64,000 bases of DNA from Hyaloperonospora brassicae (lineage: Eukaryota > Oomycota > Peronosporomycetes > Peronosporales > Peronosporaceae), in NCBI GenBank assembly GCA_947650285.1, contig CANTFL010001238.1, positions 124,001-188,000 on the forward strand, given 5' to 3'. Positions 21,285 through 29,270 of the stretch are shown piece after piece. A program made the position numbers and the translations under genes. Within the stretch, counting starts at the first letter, position 1, and the number at the start of each line of letters is the position of its first letter. The notes under the pieces were generated by a model. It was not told where the DNA came from. It ran no database searches and saw only the letters and a list, made by a program, of their open reading frames with translations.

Positions 21285-21675
21285 TGTAACGGGGCAGCCC
21301 GTTACATGGAATTGTCACTTTAAAGAAAGTGACAATAAAGAATATGAAGTTATATATTCTTTGAACAATATCACCAAAGTGGTGATATTGAAGGGTCGAC
21401 CAAAGAGTCTGTTCATTGGTTGATATCTTGATGATATCAACCCACCAATCGCCGCAAGACGCGCGCAATGAGTGGTGACGAGACGTCACCATACACTCAG
21501 TTAGATTAGCATAATTAAGTTAAGTCAAACAGAGAGACAGTAGTTAAAAGACTTAATTCTATTAATATAACAGTTCTGCTTTTACCCTACCTACGCTTCC
21601 TCGCTTGCCACGTGTACGTCTGTCGGGGCACCGAAACCCTTGCGTTAAGTTCACGCAAGGGTGTGCCCCGTTACA
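21285..21675 (+). repeat. 5' LTR of the gypsy element
   Basis: A 391-bp direct repeat beginning TG and ending CA. Its first and last 12 bases are exact inverse complements (TGTAACGGGGCA / TGCCCCGTTACA). It contains several hairpins, including TGTAACGGG/CCCGTTACA, CAATATCACC/GGTGATATTG and GGTTGATATC/GATATCAACC. It should hold the promoter and polyadenylation signals. Confidence 0.95.
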
Positions 21676-21711
21676 CCTGGTAGCACTTTGTAGTCCTTCC
21701 AAGGACCACAA

Positions 21712-21735
21712 CATCCAACATGAACATGTTGGATG
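21712..21735 (+). promoter_or_regulatory. Hairpin covering the gag start codon
   Basis: CATCCAACATG and CATGTTGGATG are perfect inverse repeats of 11 bp separated by two bases (AA). The gag ATG at 21720-21722 lies in the left arm, and a second ATG (codon 3) lies in the right arm. Any element mRNA would have its initiation codon in a strong stem. A translational-control role is an inference. Confidence 0.7.
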
Positions 21736-22853
21736 AAGAAGACACCTTTCACGCCACGCGTGAAGGGTTTACCCATTTGAGTGACATCGAATGGGGTGCG
21801 GTAGAACGAATGAGTTCTACCGTAGGCGAACTCGCCATTAGCGCCATGTTGGAGTCTCTAGACAGAGACCAACAACATGCCGCTATCGCCAAGTTCATTC
21901 AAAATGAACTTGCCATCGAGAGGGAGAAAGTAGCCTTGCTTCACCAGCAAGGCTCTCAATAGGCCGAGCAGTTGAGAGAACTCGGTGCTCAACAGACGGA
22001 GCTGTTGAGACAGCAGCAATTACATGCTGCTGTGGGCGGGACGGCGCATGCGCGTCGTCTCGAAGTCATGAAAGTTGACATCTCCAAGTACAGTGGAGCC
22101 CCGGAGGACTCCCTGTTACTATGGTTTGTCGAACTCGACAGAGCCCTAAGGGCTCGTCGCGTCGAAGATGAGCAAATGAAACTCACATTTGCTCAGACCC
22201 ACTTGGCAGGGCTTGCCAAAACTTGGTCCCTGGGACTCGAGAGTAGCGACCCAAATGTGTTTAGGTCGCTAGATGACTTCAAGTCCCGGCTCAGACAAAC
22301 GTTTAAGCCGCCACGGGCTGAGTTCAGGGCTCGTTCAGAGCTCAGATAACTCAAGCAGGGTAAGCGTGATGTGCACGCTTACGCACAACATATACGACTC
22401 CTTGCGAGTAGTATAACTGCTAACCCATTACATGAACACACGTTGATTACGGTGTTCATTCAAGGGCTCGCAGAGAGGCCCGTCAGGAGCCACCTGTTCC
22501 GTCTTGAGCTGAATACGCTGGAAGATGCGATATCAGCCGCGGAACAGGAAGACTTTAGCATGAGACAGGCTCATGCTAGCTCAAACTCTTATCGTCCACC
22601 GAGACGACAAGAGATCGGAGGTCCAGAACCAATGGACCTCTGCTATGTTGAGAGCGAGAGACCTCGCTCTTCTAACAACAAGCGATTGCAGAGGTGCAAT
22701 CGCTGTCAGAAGTTAGGGCACTACGCATACGAGTGTAGTGCTCCACGTCCAGTACCAAACAGTACTGAGCGAAATGGACGACCATTTGCCAGAAAGGGCA
22801 ATGGGCGTGGGTCCAGCGCTGTTGGAAGCCGCAACAGCAGAGCGGACCATTAA
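21720..22853 (+). pseudogene. gag of the gypsy element, interrupted by two in-frame stops
   Basis: Capsid/nucleocapsid region in one reading frame from ATG 21720 to TAA near 22853, broken by TAG at 21960-21962 and TAA at 22347-22349. Order: an N-terminal helical region; a retrotransposon gag core (the block VDISKYSGAPEDSLLLWFVE, then FAQTHLAGLAKTWSLGL and FKSRLRQTFKPP); and a CCHC zinc knuckle near 22690-22735 (CNRCQKLGHYAYEC). The frame resumes unchanged after each stop, so these are point changes, not deletions. The TAG sits in the loop of a CTCTCAA/TTGAGAG hairpin, so regulated readthrough is conceivable but unproved. The end overlaps the protease frame, which lies one frame over. Confidence 0.85.
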
Positions 22854-26852: not shown

Positions 26853-27772
26853 CTCGAGAAGCGGTAGTCCGTTTCGTTCAGGACTCCATCGCAAATGCGG
26901 TGGACCGTCAGAAACGGAACGCAGACAAGAATGGAAGAGCAAATGTTCTTTCATTCAAGGTTAATGACCTAGTACTACTGTCTACGGTAAACTTACCTGG
27001 ACATGCAGTAACTAGTGTCGGCAGTAGTAAACTACTGCCGAAATACATTGGGCCATTTCGAGTGTTGCATCGCAAGGGCAATGCATACACACTCGAATTG
27101 CCACGTAGGATGCGCACGCATCCTACGTTTTACGTGGGGAGGCTTAGGTCGTACTGTCAGTACGAGCCTTCTTCTTCCGATGAAGATAGCCCCCACGTTC
27201 AAGAACATCCATCAAGTTCTTGCGTTCGCGCTCCAGACGATCCGTCTGGTCGCGCAGATATGATACCTCGGAACTCAACCGAGATATCTCCCCGCGAGCT
27301 GCCGACAGCTCGCCGAATAGGAAGCGGACATCCCGCTCGACCTGAAGCTGCGCTGTGGCAAAATCGGCGCGATCCCTCGCCCGATCAGCCTCGTGATCCT
27401 TGCGGTTCTTCCGCACGGTATCAGTCAAAGCGTAGCGCCGGTCGCGCTCGTGCTTCAAGTCATCGCACAATTCATCGATTGCGCGATCCATCTCGTAAGG
27501 TTCGAGATGGTGAACCGAATCATCTAGAGGAGGTCTTTCCTCCTCCACCACATCCTTTGGTGGATGCTCACGGTGATCAACGCTTTCTAGTGGAGCGTAT
27601 CTTGAATCACCGTGACGATTCAGGATCAAGGGGGAGCTACCTCGTCCAGTGGCGGGGGTATCCACCCTCTTGGAACAGCTGGGAGCCCCGCTCTCAGCTG
27701 TTGATGGATGTTGAAGGTCTCGTCCGCCAGTATGACGAGACCCATCCGATGAGTCCTGTGGCCCATCGGTAA
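26540..27772 (+). pseudogene. Integrase C-terminal region with chromodomain
   Basis: Continuation of pol in a shifted frame. An acidic Asp/Glu-rich stretch comes first. Then comes the integrase C-terminal barrel (VNDLVLLSTVNLP, SSKLLPKYIGPFRVLHRKG, YTLELPRRMRTHPTFYV). A low-complexity Arg/Pro/Ser linker leads to a canonical chromodomain near the end (FLVERILNHRDDSGSRGSYL, VQWRGYPPSWNSWEP). Chromodomains on integrase guide insertion to modified histones in chromoviruses. The stop is TAA at about 27770-27772. From 27144 onward this frame lies opposite the antisense ORF, so about 630 bases are constrained on both strands. Confidence 0.88.
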
Positions 27773-28748
27773 ACACGCGCCCTAGGCGCTTGTAGACGGA
27801 TTGCAAGTTTGCAATCGCGTCACGCATCTCAGCCGAGATGTGTGCCCTTCCCCAGGGCGAATTTAGGGAGTACACATCCCTATGTGCACGCTGCGAGTTA
27901 TCAACACAACTCGCACAAGGTTCTACCCATGTGAGGCAAGGAATGCCTGCCTCACTCGATAAACAGTGCAACCGGTACCTAGCACCGGTTGGCGTTCGCC
28001 TTTCGAACCTGAGGCGTGTCGCCTCAAGTTTCTTGAGCCACCCTTCTCGTCCAAAATTCGTTACGTTTTGGACGAACGCGTTCCACGCAGCCAAAAGCGA
28101 TGTTTTGTCACGCTTTTGGTTGCTGTTGTACCATCGATGTTTGAGAAGGACATCGAGATAAAAATCTGCTTCAGCGCGAAAGTTCTTTGCGCTAAAACTC
28201 AAGCCGTGAAGCTCAGTCGCATCGAATAAGGGTATTCGATGGTGTTGGCTTGTCTCGTGAGACAAGCTATTGATGAGCCGTTCGGGCAAACGCCACGGCT
28301 TCAGCTCATCACGCTTCACAGTGGTACCTTTGTCGGTACCACGGTTGTCAGTATGACGATGGGTTGCACCATCGTCAAGTCGCTCGTGCGAAGGAGCACG
28401 AGCTGATTGCGGTGATGAGCAAACATACTCATCACCCGATTCGTCATCACTGCCGAACAGACTGTGTTTCAACTCACGAGTCCGTTCGTTCGGCAGTTGC
28501 CTTGGCGAATACTGAGGCGTCGCCGGTGAGCGAGAAGCCTCTGGCGCATTGCCCGAGTCAGACACGTCTGACTCGCCAGAGTAGATGACTTCTACGTCGA
28601 GGTCATCATGCGCACGCGGTGAGGTGCCGCGTGCACCTGCAGCACCTGTTGCTGCAGGCGAAGAAGGGGTAGCAGACGACGAATCGTCTGCTGCAGAGGC
28701 TGACACAGCACCGGGCTGTGTAGGTCTTGAGTCACCTCGCATAGACAT
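27144..28748 (-). CDS. Intact antisense ORF (534 residues) inside the gypsy element
   Basis: An uninterrupted 534-codon frame on the strand opposite gag-pol, starting at 28748 just inside the 3' LTR and ending at 27144 within the integrase region. Residues 1 to about 165 are Ser/Pro/Asp-rich and probably disordered (ESDVSDSGNAPEASRSPATP). Residues about 165-330 look folded and basic (FYLDVLLKHRWYNSNQKRDK, SLLAAWNAFVQNVTNFG, EAGIPCLTWVEPCASC). The C-terminus, about 440-534, is a strong coiled coil (FLFGELSAARGEISRLSSEV, YLRDQTDRLERERKNLMDVL) with a Lys/Arg-rich end. I recognise no family. The sense strand of 27780-28748 has no comparable frame. That it stays open while gag-pol is broken argues for a real gene. 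Antisense transcription would have to start from or near the 3' LTR. Confidence 0.6.
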   Translation of the reverse strand: MSMRGDSRPTQPGAVSASAADDSSSATPSSPAATGAAGARGTSPRAHDDLDVEVIYSGESDVSDSGNAPEASRSPATPQYSPRQLPNERTRELKHSLFGSDDESGDEYVCSSPQSARAPSHERLDDGATHRHTDNRGTDKGTTVKRDELKPWRLPERLINSLSHETSQHHRIPLFDATELHGLSFSAKNFRAEADFYLDVLLKHRWYNSNQKRDKTSLLAAWNAFVQNVTNFGREGWLKKLEATRLRFERRTPTGARYRLHCLSSEAGIPCLTWVEPCASCVDNSQRAHRDVYSLNSPWGRAHISAEMRDAIANLQSVYKRLGRVFTDGPQDSSDGSRHTGGRDLQHPSTAESGAPSCSKRVDTPATGRGSSPLILNRHGDSRYAPLESVDHREHPPKDVVEEERPPLDDSVHHLEPYEMDRAIDELCDDLKHERDRRYALTDTVRKNRKDHEADRARDRADFATAQLQVERDVRFLFGELSAARGEISRLSSEVSYLRDQTDRLERERKNLMDVLERGGYLHRKKKARTDSTT

Positions 28749-28879
28749 GTTAAATATGCGAGGTCAAGCGGAAAGTGAATGGAACGGACCCAACAAGTGC
28801 TCCCTGTCCCAATGGTGGCCAACGGGTGGCCTCCATATTTTCGATAGTCACACGGTGACTATCAGTTAAGGGGGGGTGA

Positions 28880-29270
28880 TGTAACGGTGCAGCCCGTTAC
28901 ATGGAATTGTCACTTTAAAGAAAGTGACAATAAAGAATATGAAGTTATATATTCTTTGAACAATATCACCAAAGTGGTGATATTGAAGGGTCGACCAAAG
29001 AGTCTGTTCATTGGTTGATATCTTGATGATATCAACCCACCAATCGCCGCAAGACGCGCGCAATGAGTGGTGACGAGACGTCACCATACACTCAGTTAGA
29101 TTAGCATAATTAAGTTAAGTCAAACAGAGAGACAGTACTTAAAAGACTTAATTCTATTAATATAACAGTTCTGCTTTTACCCTACCTACGCTTCCTCGCT
29201 TGCTACGTGTACGTCTGTCGGGGCACCGATACCCTTGCGTTAAGTTCACGCAAGGGTGTGCCCCGTTACA
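28880..29270 (+). repeat. 3' LTR of the gypsy element
   Basis: A 391-bp copy of the 5' LTR with four substitutions: G to T in the first hairpin, G to C in GACAGTAG, C to T in TTGCCACG, and A to T in CACCGAAACC. It is preceded by the purine tract and followed by the ATGAC duplication. Confidence 0.95.

What the first reader, a model, noticed from the sequence alone, without database searches (positions are those of the whole stretch)
21285..29270. A whole retrotransposon built from serial short hairpins
Reading the gypsy element base by base, compact inverted repeats follow one another through the LTRs, gag, pol and the antisense gene. Checked examples (arm/arm): 21712-21735 CATCCAACATG/CATGTTGGATG; 21891-21911 AAGTTCAT/ATGAACTT; 21932-21954 AGCCTTGCT/AGCAAGGCT; 22170-22194 GAGCAAATG/CATTTGCTC; 22681-22704 AGCGATTGCA/TGCAATCGCT; 23049-23074 GGCGTCGAACAA/TTGTTCGACGCC; 23275-23301 CCTTGGCTC/GAGCCAAGG; 26828-26855 GAGTCAGCAG/CTGCTGACTC; 27018-27041 TCGGCAGTAGT/ACTACTGCCGA; 28091-28119 CCAAAAGCG/CGCTTTTGG; 28411-28436 GGTGATGAG/CTCATCACC. 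Dozens more exist. This is far beyond chance for coding DNA, and I know of no description of such an architecture. Possible causes: repeated template-switch (quasipalindrome) events during reverse transcription, selection for a highly structured genomic RNA (packaging, nuclease or silencing control), or a source of small RNAs.
Basis: seen in the sequence. Interest (0 to 1): 0.88.

Follow-up and report, generated by a model that had tools for sequence, protein, structure and literature searches.

The report
Retrotransposon tiled with selected hairpins
A mobile element in a water-mould (oomycete) genome carries about 120 short perfect hairpins, some twenty times more than chance, and DNA changes that many of its copies share almost never break them, so selection likely keeps them and they would help the element's strands stay folded and hidden from the host's silencing.

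Summary
All 11 listed hairpins are exact. The element 21285-29270 holds 121 perfect inverted repeats (stem >=7, loop <=12) against 5.6 in 200 dinucleotide shuffles; its reading frames hold 115 against 8.3 in codon-preserving shuffles. It is a chromodomain Ty3/gypsy LTR retrotransposon with a conserved antisense gene. In 46 other copies from the same genome, single-copy variants hit hairpin arms as often as other sites (arm/outside 1.0-1.1); variants in 2-6 copies hit arms less (0.40-0.66), and variants in 7 or more copies almost never (0-0.04). Loops vary most. That gradient is the mark of purifying selection in transmitted lineages and argues against a pure template-switch by-product, which predicts many two-sided changes. 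Pairing is Watson-Crick on both strands alike, so sense-RNA folding alone does not explain it. A 640-bp sample of a related family in the same genome lacks clear hairpin excess: the trait is probably derived. What the hairpins do is inferred: I favour keeping RNA and cDNA folded, shielded from complementary RNA. Ten searches of open-licence papers showed no description.

The parts
21280..21284 (.). 5-bp target-site duplication ATGAC, left copy
   Evidence: identical to 29271-29275
21285..21675 (+). 5' LTR (391 bp) with 7 perfect hairpins
   Evidence: 99% identical to 28880-29270; hairpin count
21720..22737 (+). gag reading frame (interrupted by stops in this copy), 15 hairpins
   Evidence: named gag from its place before the protease and a zinc-knuckle-like stretch (recalled motif), no Pfam scan of this frame
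22738..24419 (+). protease to N-terminal RT region, 24 hairpins
   Evidence: PF08284 RVP_2; tblastn of homologues; hairpins
24420..26539 (+). RT, RNase H and integrase core, 30 hairpins
   Evidence: PF00078, PF17917, PF17919, PF17921, PF00665; hairpins
26540..27772 (+). integrase C-terminus (SH3_Tf2-1) and chromodomain; its 3' part overlaps the antisense gene
   Evidence: PF24626, PF00385
27144..28748 (-). antisense gene, 534 aa, no Pfam family above cut-off; conserved in related elements; 26 hairpins
28880..29270 (+). 3' LTR (391 bp) with 6 perfect hairpins in the non-overlapping count
29271..29275 (.). 5-bp target-site duplication ATGAC, right copy
23049..23074 (.). example hairpin: 12-bp stem, 2-nt loop, in the protease frame
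26667..26694 (.). example hairpin: 12-bp stem, 4-nt loop
27103..27128 (.). example hairpin: 12-bp stem, 2-nt loop, integrase C-terminus
31426..31853 (+). diverged LTR of the same or a sister subfamily; keeps two of the LTR hairpins with stem >=8
52484..52877 (+). solo LTR, 96% identical to the 5' LTR; keeps four of the LTR hairpins with stem >=8

Best explanation
The element is a Ty3/gypsy retrotransposon tiled from LTR to LTR with short, perfectly paired hairpins that purifying selection likely keeps, and that are predicted to hold its single-stranded forms folded, which would shield them from complementary RNA and so from the host's RNA silencing. Shown: the excess, the stem-size class (mostly 8-10 bp, at most 12-13), the strand symmetry, the compatibility with the encoded proteins, and the loss of arm-breaking variants as they rise in frequency among copies. 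Inferred: that the agent is selection on pairing; that the folded forms are both the sense RNA and its complement (antisense RNA or minus-strand cDNA); and that the benefit is shielding. Reasoning for the last step: loops evolve fastest, so nothing seems to read the loops; only the pairing matters; stems stay short; and both strands pair by Watson-Crick rules, as expected if transcripts or cDNA of both polarities have to stay folded. The element has an antisense gene, so both polarities are expected to be transcribed.
For: Excess over dinucleotide and codon-preserving shuffles. Frequency gradient in 46 copies, with the labelling copy carrying the common state: arm/outside 1.00-1.11 for single-copy variants, 0.40-0.66 for 2-6 copies, 0-0.04 for 7+ (labels from L007, L047, L031, L004, L026); Fisher test of single against shared, p = 0.00018-0.0047 over L007, L004, L047 and L031; 7+ class, arm against outside, p = 7e-8 (L007), 0.004 (L047), 9e-6 (L031), 0.017 (L004). 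300 rotated masks with L007 never gave a shared ratio <=0.55 (minimum 0.60). Third codon positions of pol: shared variants 0.012-0.044 in arms against 0.09-0.10 outside. Four pairs changed on both sides and kept pairing in comparisons of diverged copies. Hairpin number stays at 83-93 per 5.43 kb in copies that differ by up to about 3% from L007. Stem length falls with GC content (rho -0.30, p = 0.003, n = 98, stem >=8; -0.22, p = 0.015 for stem >=7; shuffled stems +0.04; -0.24, p = 0.04 in L007), as a stability threshold predicts. Loops vary 1.5-4.7 times more than outside. Predicted open 16-nt stretches: 0.1-0.2% of positions against 1.2% in a shuffled element. In Phytophthora, 25/26-nt small RNAs come mainly from transposable elements (PMC3804510; abstract and other passages seen).
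Against: Nothing here measures transcription, folding or small RNAs. Sense-RNA structure should tolerate G-U; among arm variants the G-U to A-C ratio is the same in single and shared classes (19:38 and 6:12), so the folded molecule is not identified; that mismatch test is also weak, as MS2 shows no G-U surplus by the looser scan either (20:23). The window copy's own lineage shows no arm constraint (private changes 0.023 per arm site against 0.017 outside) although its LTRs differ at only 4 of 391 sites: hairpins seem not strictly needed for recent movement of that copy, or the LTRs were homogenised. Split by region, only the antisense-gene part is significant alone (p = 7.5e-5); pol alone gives p = 0.4 and the upstream 1.5 kb p = 0.064; with variants of 2-6 copies only, p = 0.02-0.07. 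Loops are also richer in single-copy variants (1.6-1.8 times), so a mutation-rate difference may add to selection. No tree was built, and copies were taken by similarity to the window's pol. Low predicted accessibility is not unique: the antisense strand of the citrate synthase gene is about equally closed. A related family without clear hairpin excess probably also has many copies (one copy sampled).
Confidence: 0.4

Rival explanations
1. Reverse-transcriptase template switching at imperfect inverted repeats converts them to perfect ones on each cycle, so the hairpins are a mutational by-product filtered by protein function.
For: Pairs are perfect and strand-symmetric, as copying one arm from the other gives. 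In pol, none of 168 arm codons carries a residue unseen in 120 homologues, as if only harmless conversions survive. Template switching between short inverted repeats is documented in yeast coding DNA (PMC8604942, abstract and outline) and proposed for nematomorph coding palindromes (PMC6649704, discussion section).
Against: Homogenisation without selection leaves arm substitution at the neutral rate with two-sided changes. With outside sites at 62 of 3655 in the 7+ class, about 12 two-sided pairs are expected among 687 (my estimate); none was seen. Loop inversions fit homologues better in 0 of 24, 1 of 28 and 0 of 28 hairpins for three homologue sets. A 640-bp piece of a related family in the same genome shows no clear excess.
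Confidence: 0.2
2. Selection for a compact, nuclease-resistant genomic RNA that Gag can package, as in genome-scale ordered RNA structure of RNA viruses; the antisense strand pairs only as a mirror image.
For: Sense folding z-score -4.8 in a well-kept copy, antisense -4.7 (L007); loops are A-rich on the sense strand (0.32 A, 0.25 T), though not in the antisense-gene part (0.27, 0.28); strict scan of four well-kept copies gives G-T 16-18 against A-C 10-12; MS2 and rRNA also show a small excess of perfect hairpins with stem >=7 (7 against 2.1, 7 against 2.6).
Against: G-U share of predicted pairs is about 0.06 on both strands against 0.13 in a shuffle, while rRNA (0.175 sense, 0.104 antisense) and MS2 (0.114, 0.087) differ by strand; the perfect-hairpin excess is about 20-fold here against about 3-fold in MS2 and rRNA; loops are the fastest-evolving part, against loop-read packaging signals.
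Confidence: 0.25
3. Selection on DNA-level pairing: hairpins in minus-strand cDNA or cruciforms in the inserted DNA protect or position the element.
For: G-T and A-C mismatches are treated alike, as expected for DNA; LTRs carry hairpins too.
Against: Sense-strand A-rich loops and the slight G-T surplus in fixed mismatches under the strict scan lean to RNA; I know of no such mechanism in this group (recall, not searched).
Confidence: 0.15
4. Mutation shielding: arms mutate less during single-stranded phases because they are paired, and no selection is involved.
For: Loops carry more variants in every class.
Against: Single-copy variants hit arms as often as outside, and the deficit grows with frequency; shielding cannot create 121 perfect hairpins.
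Confidence: 0.05

Closest known systems
Coding palindromes in nematomorph mitochondrial genes (PMC6649704; passages and discussion section seen)
   Same: Many perfect inverted repeats inside conserved protein-coding sequence, fitted into the code's degeneracy; pairing of third with third codon positions is the rarest phase (here 19 of 79 hairpins in sense frames, p = 0.19).
   Different: Those are up to 284 bp, scattered, and the authors lean to a conversion process; here stems of mostly 8-10 bp tile an entire mobile element, including LTRs, and copies show signs of purifying selection.
Genome-scale ordered RNA structure of RNA viruses (recalled); MS2 and E. coli rRNA used as controls
   Same: Pervasive local folding over a whole genome that codes for proteins.
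   Different: MS2 and rRNA have only a small excess of perfect hairpins by the same count (7 against 2.1 and 7 against 2.6; element 121 against 5.9); here pairing is nearly all Watson-Crick and equal on both strands.
[quoted passage not shown] the original paper is not held)
   Same: Repeated palindromes in an LTR retrotransposon, linked there to small RNAs.
   Different: [quoted passage not shown] here gag, pol, antisense gene and LTRs all carry them.
Template switching between inverted-repeat arms in yeast (PMC8604942, abstract and outline)
   Same: A known way to make perfect short inverted repeats in coding DNA.
   Different: 39 protein-coding genes reported there; here about 15 hairpins per kb in one element, kept without much two-sided turnover.
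Retand and other plant gypsy elements with an antisense ORF between pol and 3' LTR (PMC11963269, passages seen)
   Same: Antisense gene in the same place.
   Different: No TRP28 domain found here; apparently a different protein family.
Chronos chromodomain elements of oomycetes (PMC5348765, passages seen)
   Same: Oomycete Ty3/gypsy with a chromodomain after integrase.
   Different: Chronos carries a second, archaeal-type RNase H; none was found here by Pfam. The words hairpin, palindrom and inverted do not occur in that paper's main text.

Membership tests
Ty3/gypsy LTR retrotransposon | two LTRs and target-site duplication | tested here: met
   391-bp LTRs 99% identical; 5-bp duplication ATGAC
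Ty3/gypsy LTR retrotransposon | domain order protease, RT, RNase H, integrase | tested here: met
   Pfam matches in that order along 22738-26852
Chromodomain-bearing Ty3/gypsy element | chromodomain after integrase | tested here: met
   PF00385, E 1e-12, 27.6-27.7 kb
Chronos (oomycete) | additional archaeal-type RNase H | tested here: not met
   no further RNase H family at E <=0.001 in the element frames scanned; the 23926-24419 stretch was not scanned
Genome-scale ordered RNA structure | folding energy far below composition-matched shuffles along the genome | tested here: met
   mean z -4.2; below -2 in 94% of 33 windows
Genome-scale ordered RNA structure | signal specific to the RNA strand (wobble pairs tolerated) | tested here: not met
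   both strands equal; G-U share about 0.06 on both, whereas rRNA and MS2 differ by strand; the simpler mismatch count is weak, as MS2 shows 20:23
Template-switch (quasipalindrome) product | two-sided or multi-base templated changes in arms | tested here: not met
   0 two-sided among 7+ variants; 3 variant sites among 2-6 and 2-3 among single ones; one multi-base arm difference between LTR copies, polarity unclear
Template-switch (quasipalindrome) product | inversion of the loop | tested here: not met
   inverted loop better in 0 of 24, 1 of 28 and 0 of 28
Nematomorph-type coding palindromes | both arms encode conserved amino acids | tested here: met
   in pol, 0 of 168 arm codons unseen in 120 homologues; match to majority residue 0.70 in arms, 0.73 outside
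Retand-type antisense ORF | TRP28 domain (PF04195) | tested here: not met
   no such match up to E = 1 in five family members
siRNA or miRNA precursor | small RNAs made from the hairpins | not testable with these tools
   no expression data

The most novel reading that the evidence does not exclude
A selfish element whose entire genome, on both strands and through overlapping protein-coding frames, is selected to be locally self-complementary: a self-folding genome that hides every single-stranded form from pairing with its complement, as a general counter to RNA silencing.
Probability: 0.3. Interest if true: 0.92.

Novelty: new variant of a known kind. Interest (0 to 1): 0.8.

Why it matters
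It is a natural case in which protein code, and in one stretch two opposite protein codes, coexist with hairpins at a median centre spacing of 44 bases, with signs that the hairpins are selected. If the shielding reading holds, it would be a structural rather than protein-based way for a transposon to resist RNA silencing, testable in one genome because a relative without clear hairpin excess lives beside it. Even if the function is another, the many young copies (at least 81 places with the antisense gene) let selection on nucleic-acid structure be measured directly.

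Tried and rejected
Chance and base composition: rejected. Codon usage: rejected. Assembly or sequencing artefact: rejected, since 47 other copies carry comparable numbers of hairpins and 45 of 46 have the 706-codon pol stretch open. 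A property of the whole genome or of all gypsy elements: not supported; flanks and host genes are near background, a second gypsy fragment (43.5-46 kb) has 5 against 2.0 shuffled, and 640 bp of a related family have 1 against 0.46 with stem >=7, 6 against 1.8 with stem >=6, a mild excess. Crude overwriting of one arm by the other: arm residues are about as conserved as the rest; GC3 differs between 5' and 3' arms in pol alone (0.63, 0.44) but over all sense frames only at p = 0.07 (0.58, 0.50). Loop-read packaging signals: loops are the most variable part. Gains against losses of pairs with an outgroup: too few events to decide. Relatives outside this genome: two viral-contig scans and one genome-contig scan with pol, and one LTR pattern in viral contigs, found nothing, so hairpins in other species are untested. 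A test of hairpin compatibility of homologous proteins gave 8-14% fewer lost pairs than null in the pooled close, distant and antisense sets; I do not lean on it. Host species: citrate synthase is nearest to Phytophthora cactorum (93%), with Bremia at 88%; the pol homologue of highest identity with a species name is from Peronospora effusa (83% over 68% of the query); not resolved further. One search compared copies before three were turned round; its between-copy counts are void and were redone. Counts are not corrected for the choice of labelling copy; searches are.

Full report
Observation. The 11 quoted hairpins are exact. Counting perfect inverted repeats without overlap (stem >=7, loop <=12), the element holds 121 in 7986 bp; 200 dinucleotide shuffles give a mean of 5.6, sd 2.5, maximum 15. 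With stem >=9 there are 60 against 0.34. Eight partly overlapping windows of the same length elsewhere hold 3 to 13. Shuffling synonymous codons leaves means of 0.5-1.9 hairpins per frame where 3 to 35 are seen, 115 against 8.3 in sum over six partly overlapping frames. The excess is spread over the element: 5' LTR 7, gag part 15, protease to RT 24, RT to integrase 30, integrase C-terminus 8, double-coded stretch 7, antisense-only stretch 19, the 131 bp before the 3' LTR 1, 3' LTR 6, and none in the 44-bp leader. The maximal-stem spectrum (loops 2-9) follows shuffles at 3-4 bp, dips to 20 at 7 bp, rises again at 8-9 bp (34 and 28 seen, 0.9 and 0.1 expected) and ends at 12. The excess is strong for loops up to 12, weaker at 13-40, and near shuffle level beyond. 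Some hairpins with long loops seem to contain an inner hairpin (my reading of the sequences printed).

What the element is. LTRs of 391 bp (4 differences), a 5-bp duplication ATGAC, and Pfam matches for aspartic protease, RT, RNase H, integrase, a Tf2-type SH3 domain and a chromodomain make it a Ty3/gypsy retrotransposon. Where named, nearly all of its nearest listed proteins are from oomycetes; the named one of highest identity is from Peronospora effusa (83%). The window lies in a 100.6-Mb assembly of 898 contigs, in which a capped search lists 56 pol places (the window's included) at 95% or more protein identity. Opposite to pol lies a 534-aa gene. Nine proteins, eight unnamed and one from Peronospora matthiolae, are related to it. 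It is free of stops in 66 of the 81 genome places listed, a capped list (my count of the table). In the stretch where only it codes, shared variants fall 25, 10 and 10 on its third, second and first codon positions; single-copy ones fall 24, 23 and 13. So it looks like a real, selected gene.

Folding. In 33 windows of 120 nt the mean z-score is -4.2 (sense) and -4.5 (antisense), against -0.5 to +0.3 in flanks and two host genes. Two well-kept copies reach -4.7 to -4.9 on both strands. Mismatches inside stems are G-T 19, A-C 15, other 20 under a strict scan, and 43, 40 and 77 under a looser one. G-U makes up 0.064 and 0.062 of predicted pairs on the two strands, against 0.133 in one shuffled version, 0.175 in E. 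coli rRNA sense (0.104 antisense) and 0.114 in MS2 sense (0.087 antisense). By the same perfect-hairpin count MS2 and rRNA show a small excess (7 against 2.1, 7 against 2.6 with stem >=7; 1 against 0.2 and 0 against 0.1 with stem >=9), far below the element. So this is not the usual picture of a structured RNA: pairing is nearly pure Watson-Crick and equal on both strands. Three results lean the other way or weaken this. Loops are A-rich on the sense strand (0.324 A, 0.251 T), though not in the antisense-gene part (0.274, 0.280). Four well-kept copies have G-T 16-18 against A-C 10-12 under the strict scan, but 25-30 against 25-31 under the looser one. And the mismatch count has little power, since MS2 gives 20 G-T to 23 A-C. 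Longer stems are poorer in GC (rho -0.30, p = 0.003, n = 98), which shuffled stems do not show.

Relation to the proteins. In pol, arm codons match the majority residue of 120 homologues about as often as the rest (0.70 and 0.73), at sites of slightly lower conservation (0.71 and 0.76), and none of 168 arm codons carries a residue unseen in homologues. The hairpins are thus written mostly in choices that the protein family allows. Hairpin phases in sense frames were 32, 28 and 19, the phase that ties third to third positions being the rarest, as in nematomorphs, but not significantly so (p = 0.19).

Copies. I fetched pol with 1.5 kb on each side for 48 of the 56 listed copies, the window copy included, and dropped the window copy and L009 (about 1.6 kb of gaps) before the counts, leaving 46. 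The 47 copies other than the window's hold 83-93 hairpins per 5.43 kb and 41-51 with stem >=9; the window copy holds 76 and 31, so it is a decayed outlier. Counting only sites where the labelling copy carries the common state, L007 gives, as arm (of 1374 sites), loop (401) and outside (3655): single-copy variants 85, 42 and 220; variants in 2-6 copies 26, 19 and 107; in 7 or more copies 1, 14 and 62. The arm/outside ratio runs 1.03, 0.65, 0.04. With L047, L031, L004 and L026 as labelling copies it runs 1.00-1.11, 0.40-0.66, 0. Single against shared: p = 0.00018, 0.0047, 0.0046 and 0.00032 for L007, L004, L047 and L031; restricted to 2-6 copies 0.073, 0.046, 0.049 and 0.024. Rotating the L007 mask 300 times never gave 0.55 or less. 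By region the test is significant alone only in the antisense-gene part (p = 7.5e-5); the upstream 1.5 kb gives 0.064 and pol 0.4. At third codon positions of pol, shared variants occur at 7/180, 2/169 and 8/181 arm sites against 45/484, 47/492 and 44/483 outside (p = 0.022, 0.00011, 0.051 for L007, L004, L047, not corrected for labelling). In the 5' 1.7 kb, 20 copies show the same trend (shared arm 0.020-0.028, outside 0.049-0.050, p = 0.007-0.07 for three labelling copies, not corrected).

Reading of the copies. Mutations enter arms at the ordinary rate but do not rise in frequency there, which is what purifying selection on transmitted copies predicts. If arms were only homogenised by template switching, variants would reach high frequency at the neutral rate as two-sided changes; about 12 would be expected in the 7+ class (my estimate) and none was seen. 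Four two-sided changes that keep pairing were found in comparisons of diverged copies, such as C-G to T-A and G-C to A-T, with one-sided intermediates in other copies for two of them. G-U and A-C breaks stand 19:38 among single-copy and 6:12 among shared variants (L007), so neither is kept preferentially. Over the whole 5.43 kb loops are the most variable class, although in pol alone their shared variants do not exceed those outside with L007 labels.

Origin. A 640-bp piece of a related family of the same genome (68% nucleotide identity over 260 bp to the window copy) has 1 hairpin against 0.46 in shuffles with stem >=7, while an overlapping piece of a member of the window's family has 8. One sample of one family is thin, but it points to a trait that arose within this lineage.

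Mechanism. What is shown is the structure and its conservation. What is inferred is the use. Since loops are free to vary and only pairing is kept, a factor that reads loop sequences is unlikely. Since both strands pair equally well by Watson-Crick rules, I think both polarities have to stay folded: the genomic RNA and either antisense transcripts, which the antisense gene implies, or the minus-strand cDNA. The stems are predicted to close nearly all open stretches of 16 nt (0.1-0.2% of positions open, against 1.2% when shuffled), though one host gene's antisense strand is about as closed, and they are likely too short for Dicer-type cutting. In Phytophthora, 25/26-nt small RNAs are linked to transposable elements (PMC3804510; abstract and other passages seen). 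Shielding from complementary RNA is therefore the reading I favour, at about 0.4; packaging or compaction of the RNA, a DNA-level role, and a mutational origin remain open.

Literature. Ten searches over open-licence papers listed no description of a hairpin-tiled retrotransposon that I could recognise from titles and abstracts; the closest were nematomorph coding palindromes and the Sirevirus LTR palindromes.

Noticed in passing
27144-28748 (-): Antisense gene of 534 aa without a Pfam family above cut-off, conserved in related elements, with a conserved central region and a coiled-coil-like, basic C-terminus (my reading of the alignment).
   Followed up: partly
27144-27772: Sense integrase/chromodomain frame and antisense gene overlap for about 630 bp, so both strands code for conserved protein while also carrying 7 hairpins.
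   Followed up: partly
21285-29270: This copy's gag and pol frames are broken and its lineage shows no arm constraint, yet its LTRs differ at only 4 of 391 sites; recent movement of a defective copy, LTR homogenisation or recombination could explain it.
   Followed up: partly
L004-L050 (G000 copies): Outside hairpins, shared variants show G>A 42 against C>T 18 with L007 as labelling copy, a possible strand-biased mutation signature of the cDNA phase.
   Followed up: no
L004-L050, hairpin loops: Loops carry 1.6-1.8 times more single-copy variants than other sites, which may mean that loops mutate more.
   Followed up: no
43856-45216 (-): Fragments of a second, distant gypsy element (mostly 21-30% protein identity over long matches) with little hairpin excess (5 against 2.0).
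   Followed up: partly
12771-13636 and 14358-15167: Inverted pair of about 0.87 kb at 91% identity.
   Followed up: no
32405-32661 and 36768-37024: Direct repeat of 257 bp at 93% identity, each copy with the same 10-bp hairpin.
   Followed up: no
31426-31853: Diverged LTR whose first half is 94% but a later part only 78% identical to the element's LTR: a mosaic or sister subfamily.
   Followed up: partly
21311-21336 compared with 52484-52877 and 31426-31853: One LTR hairpin is perfect in this element, while the two other LTR copies share a different, longer version of the 3' arm; a multi-base difference of unclear polarity that would fit a templated change.
   Followed up: partly
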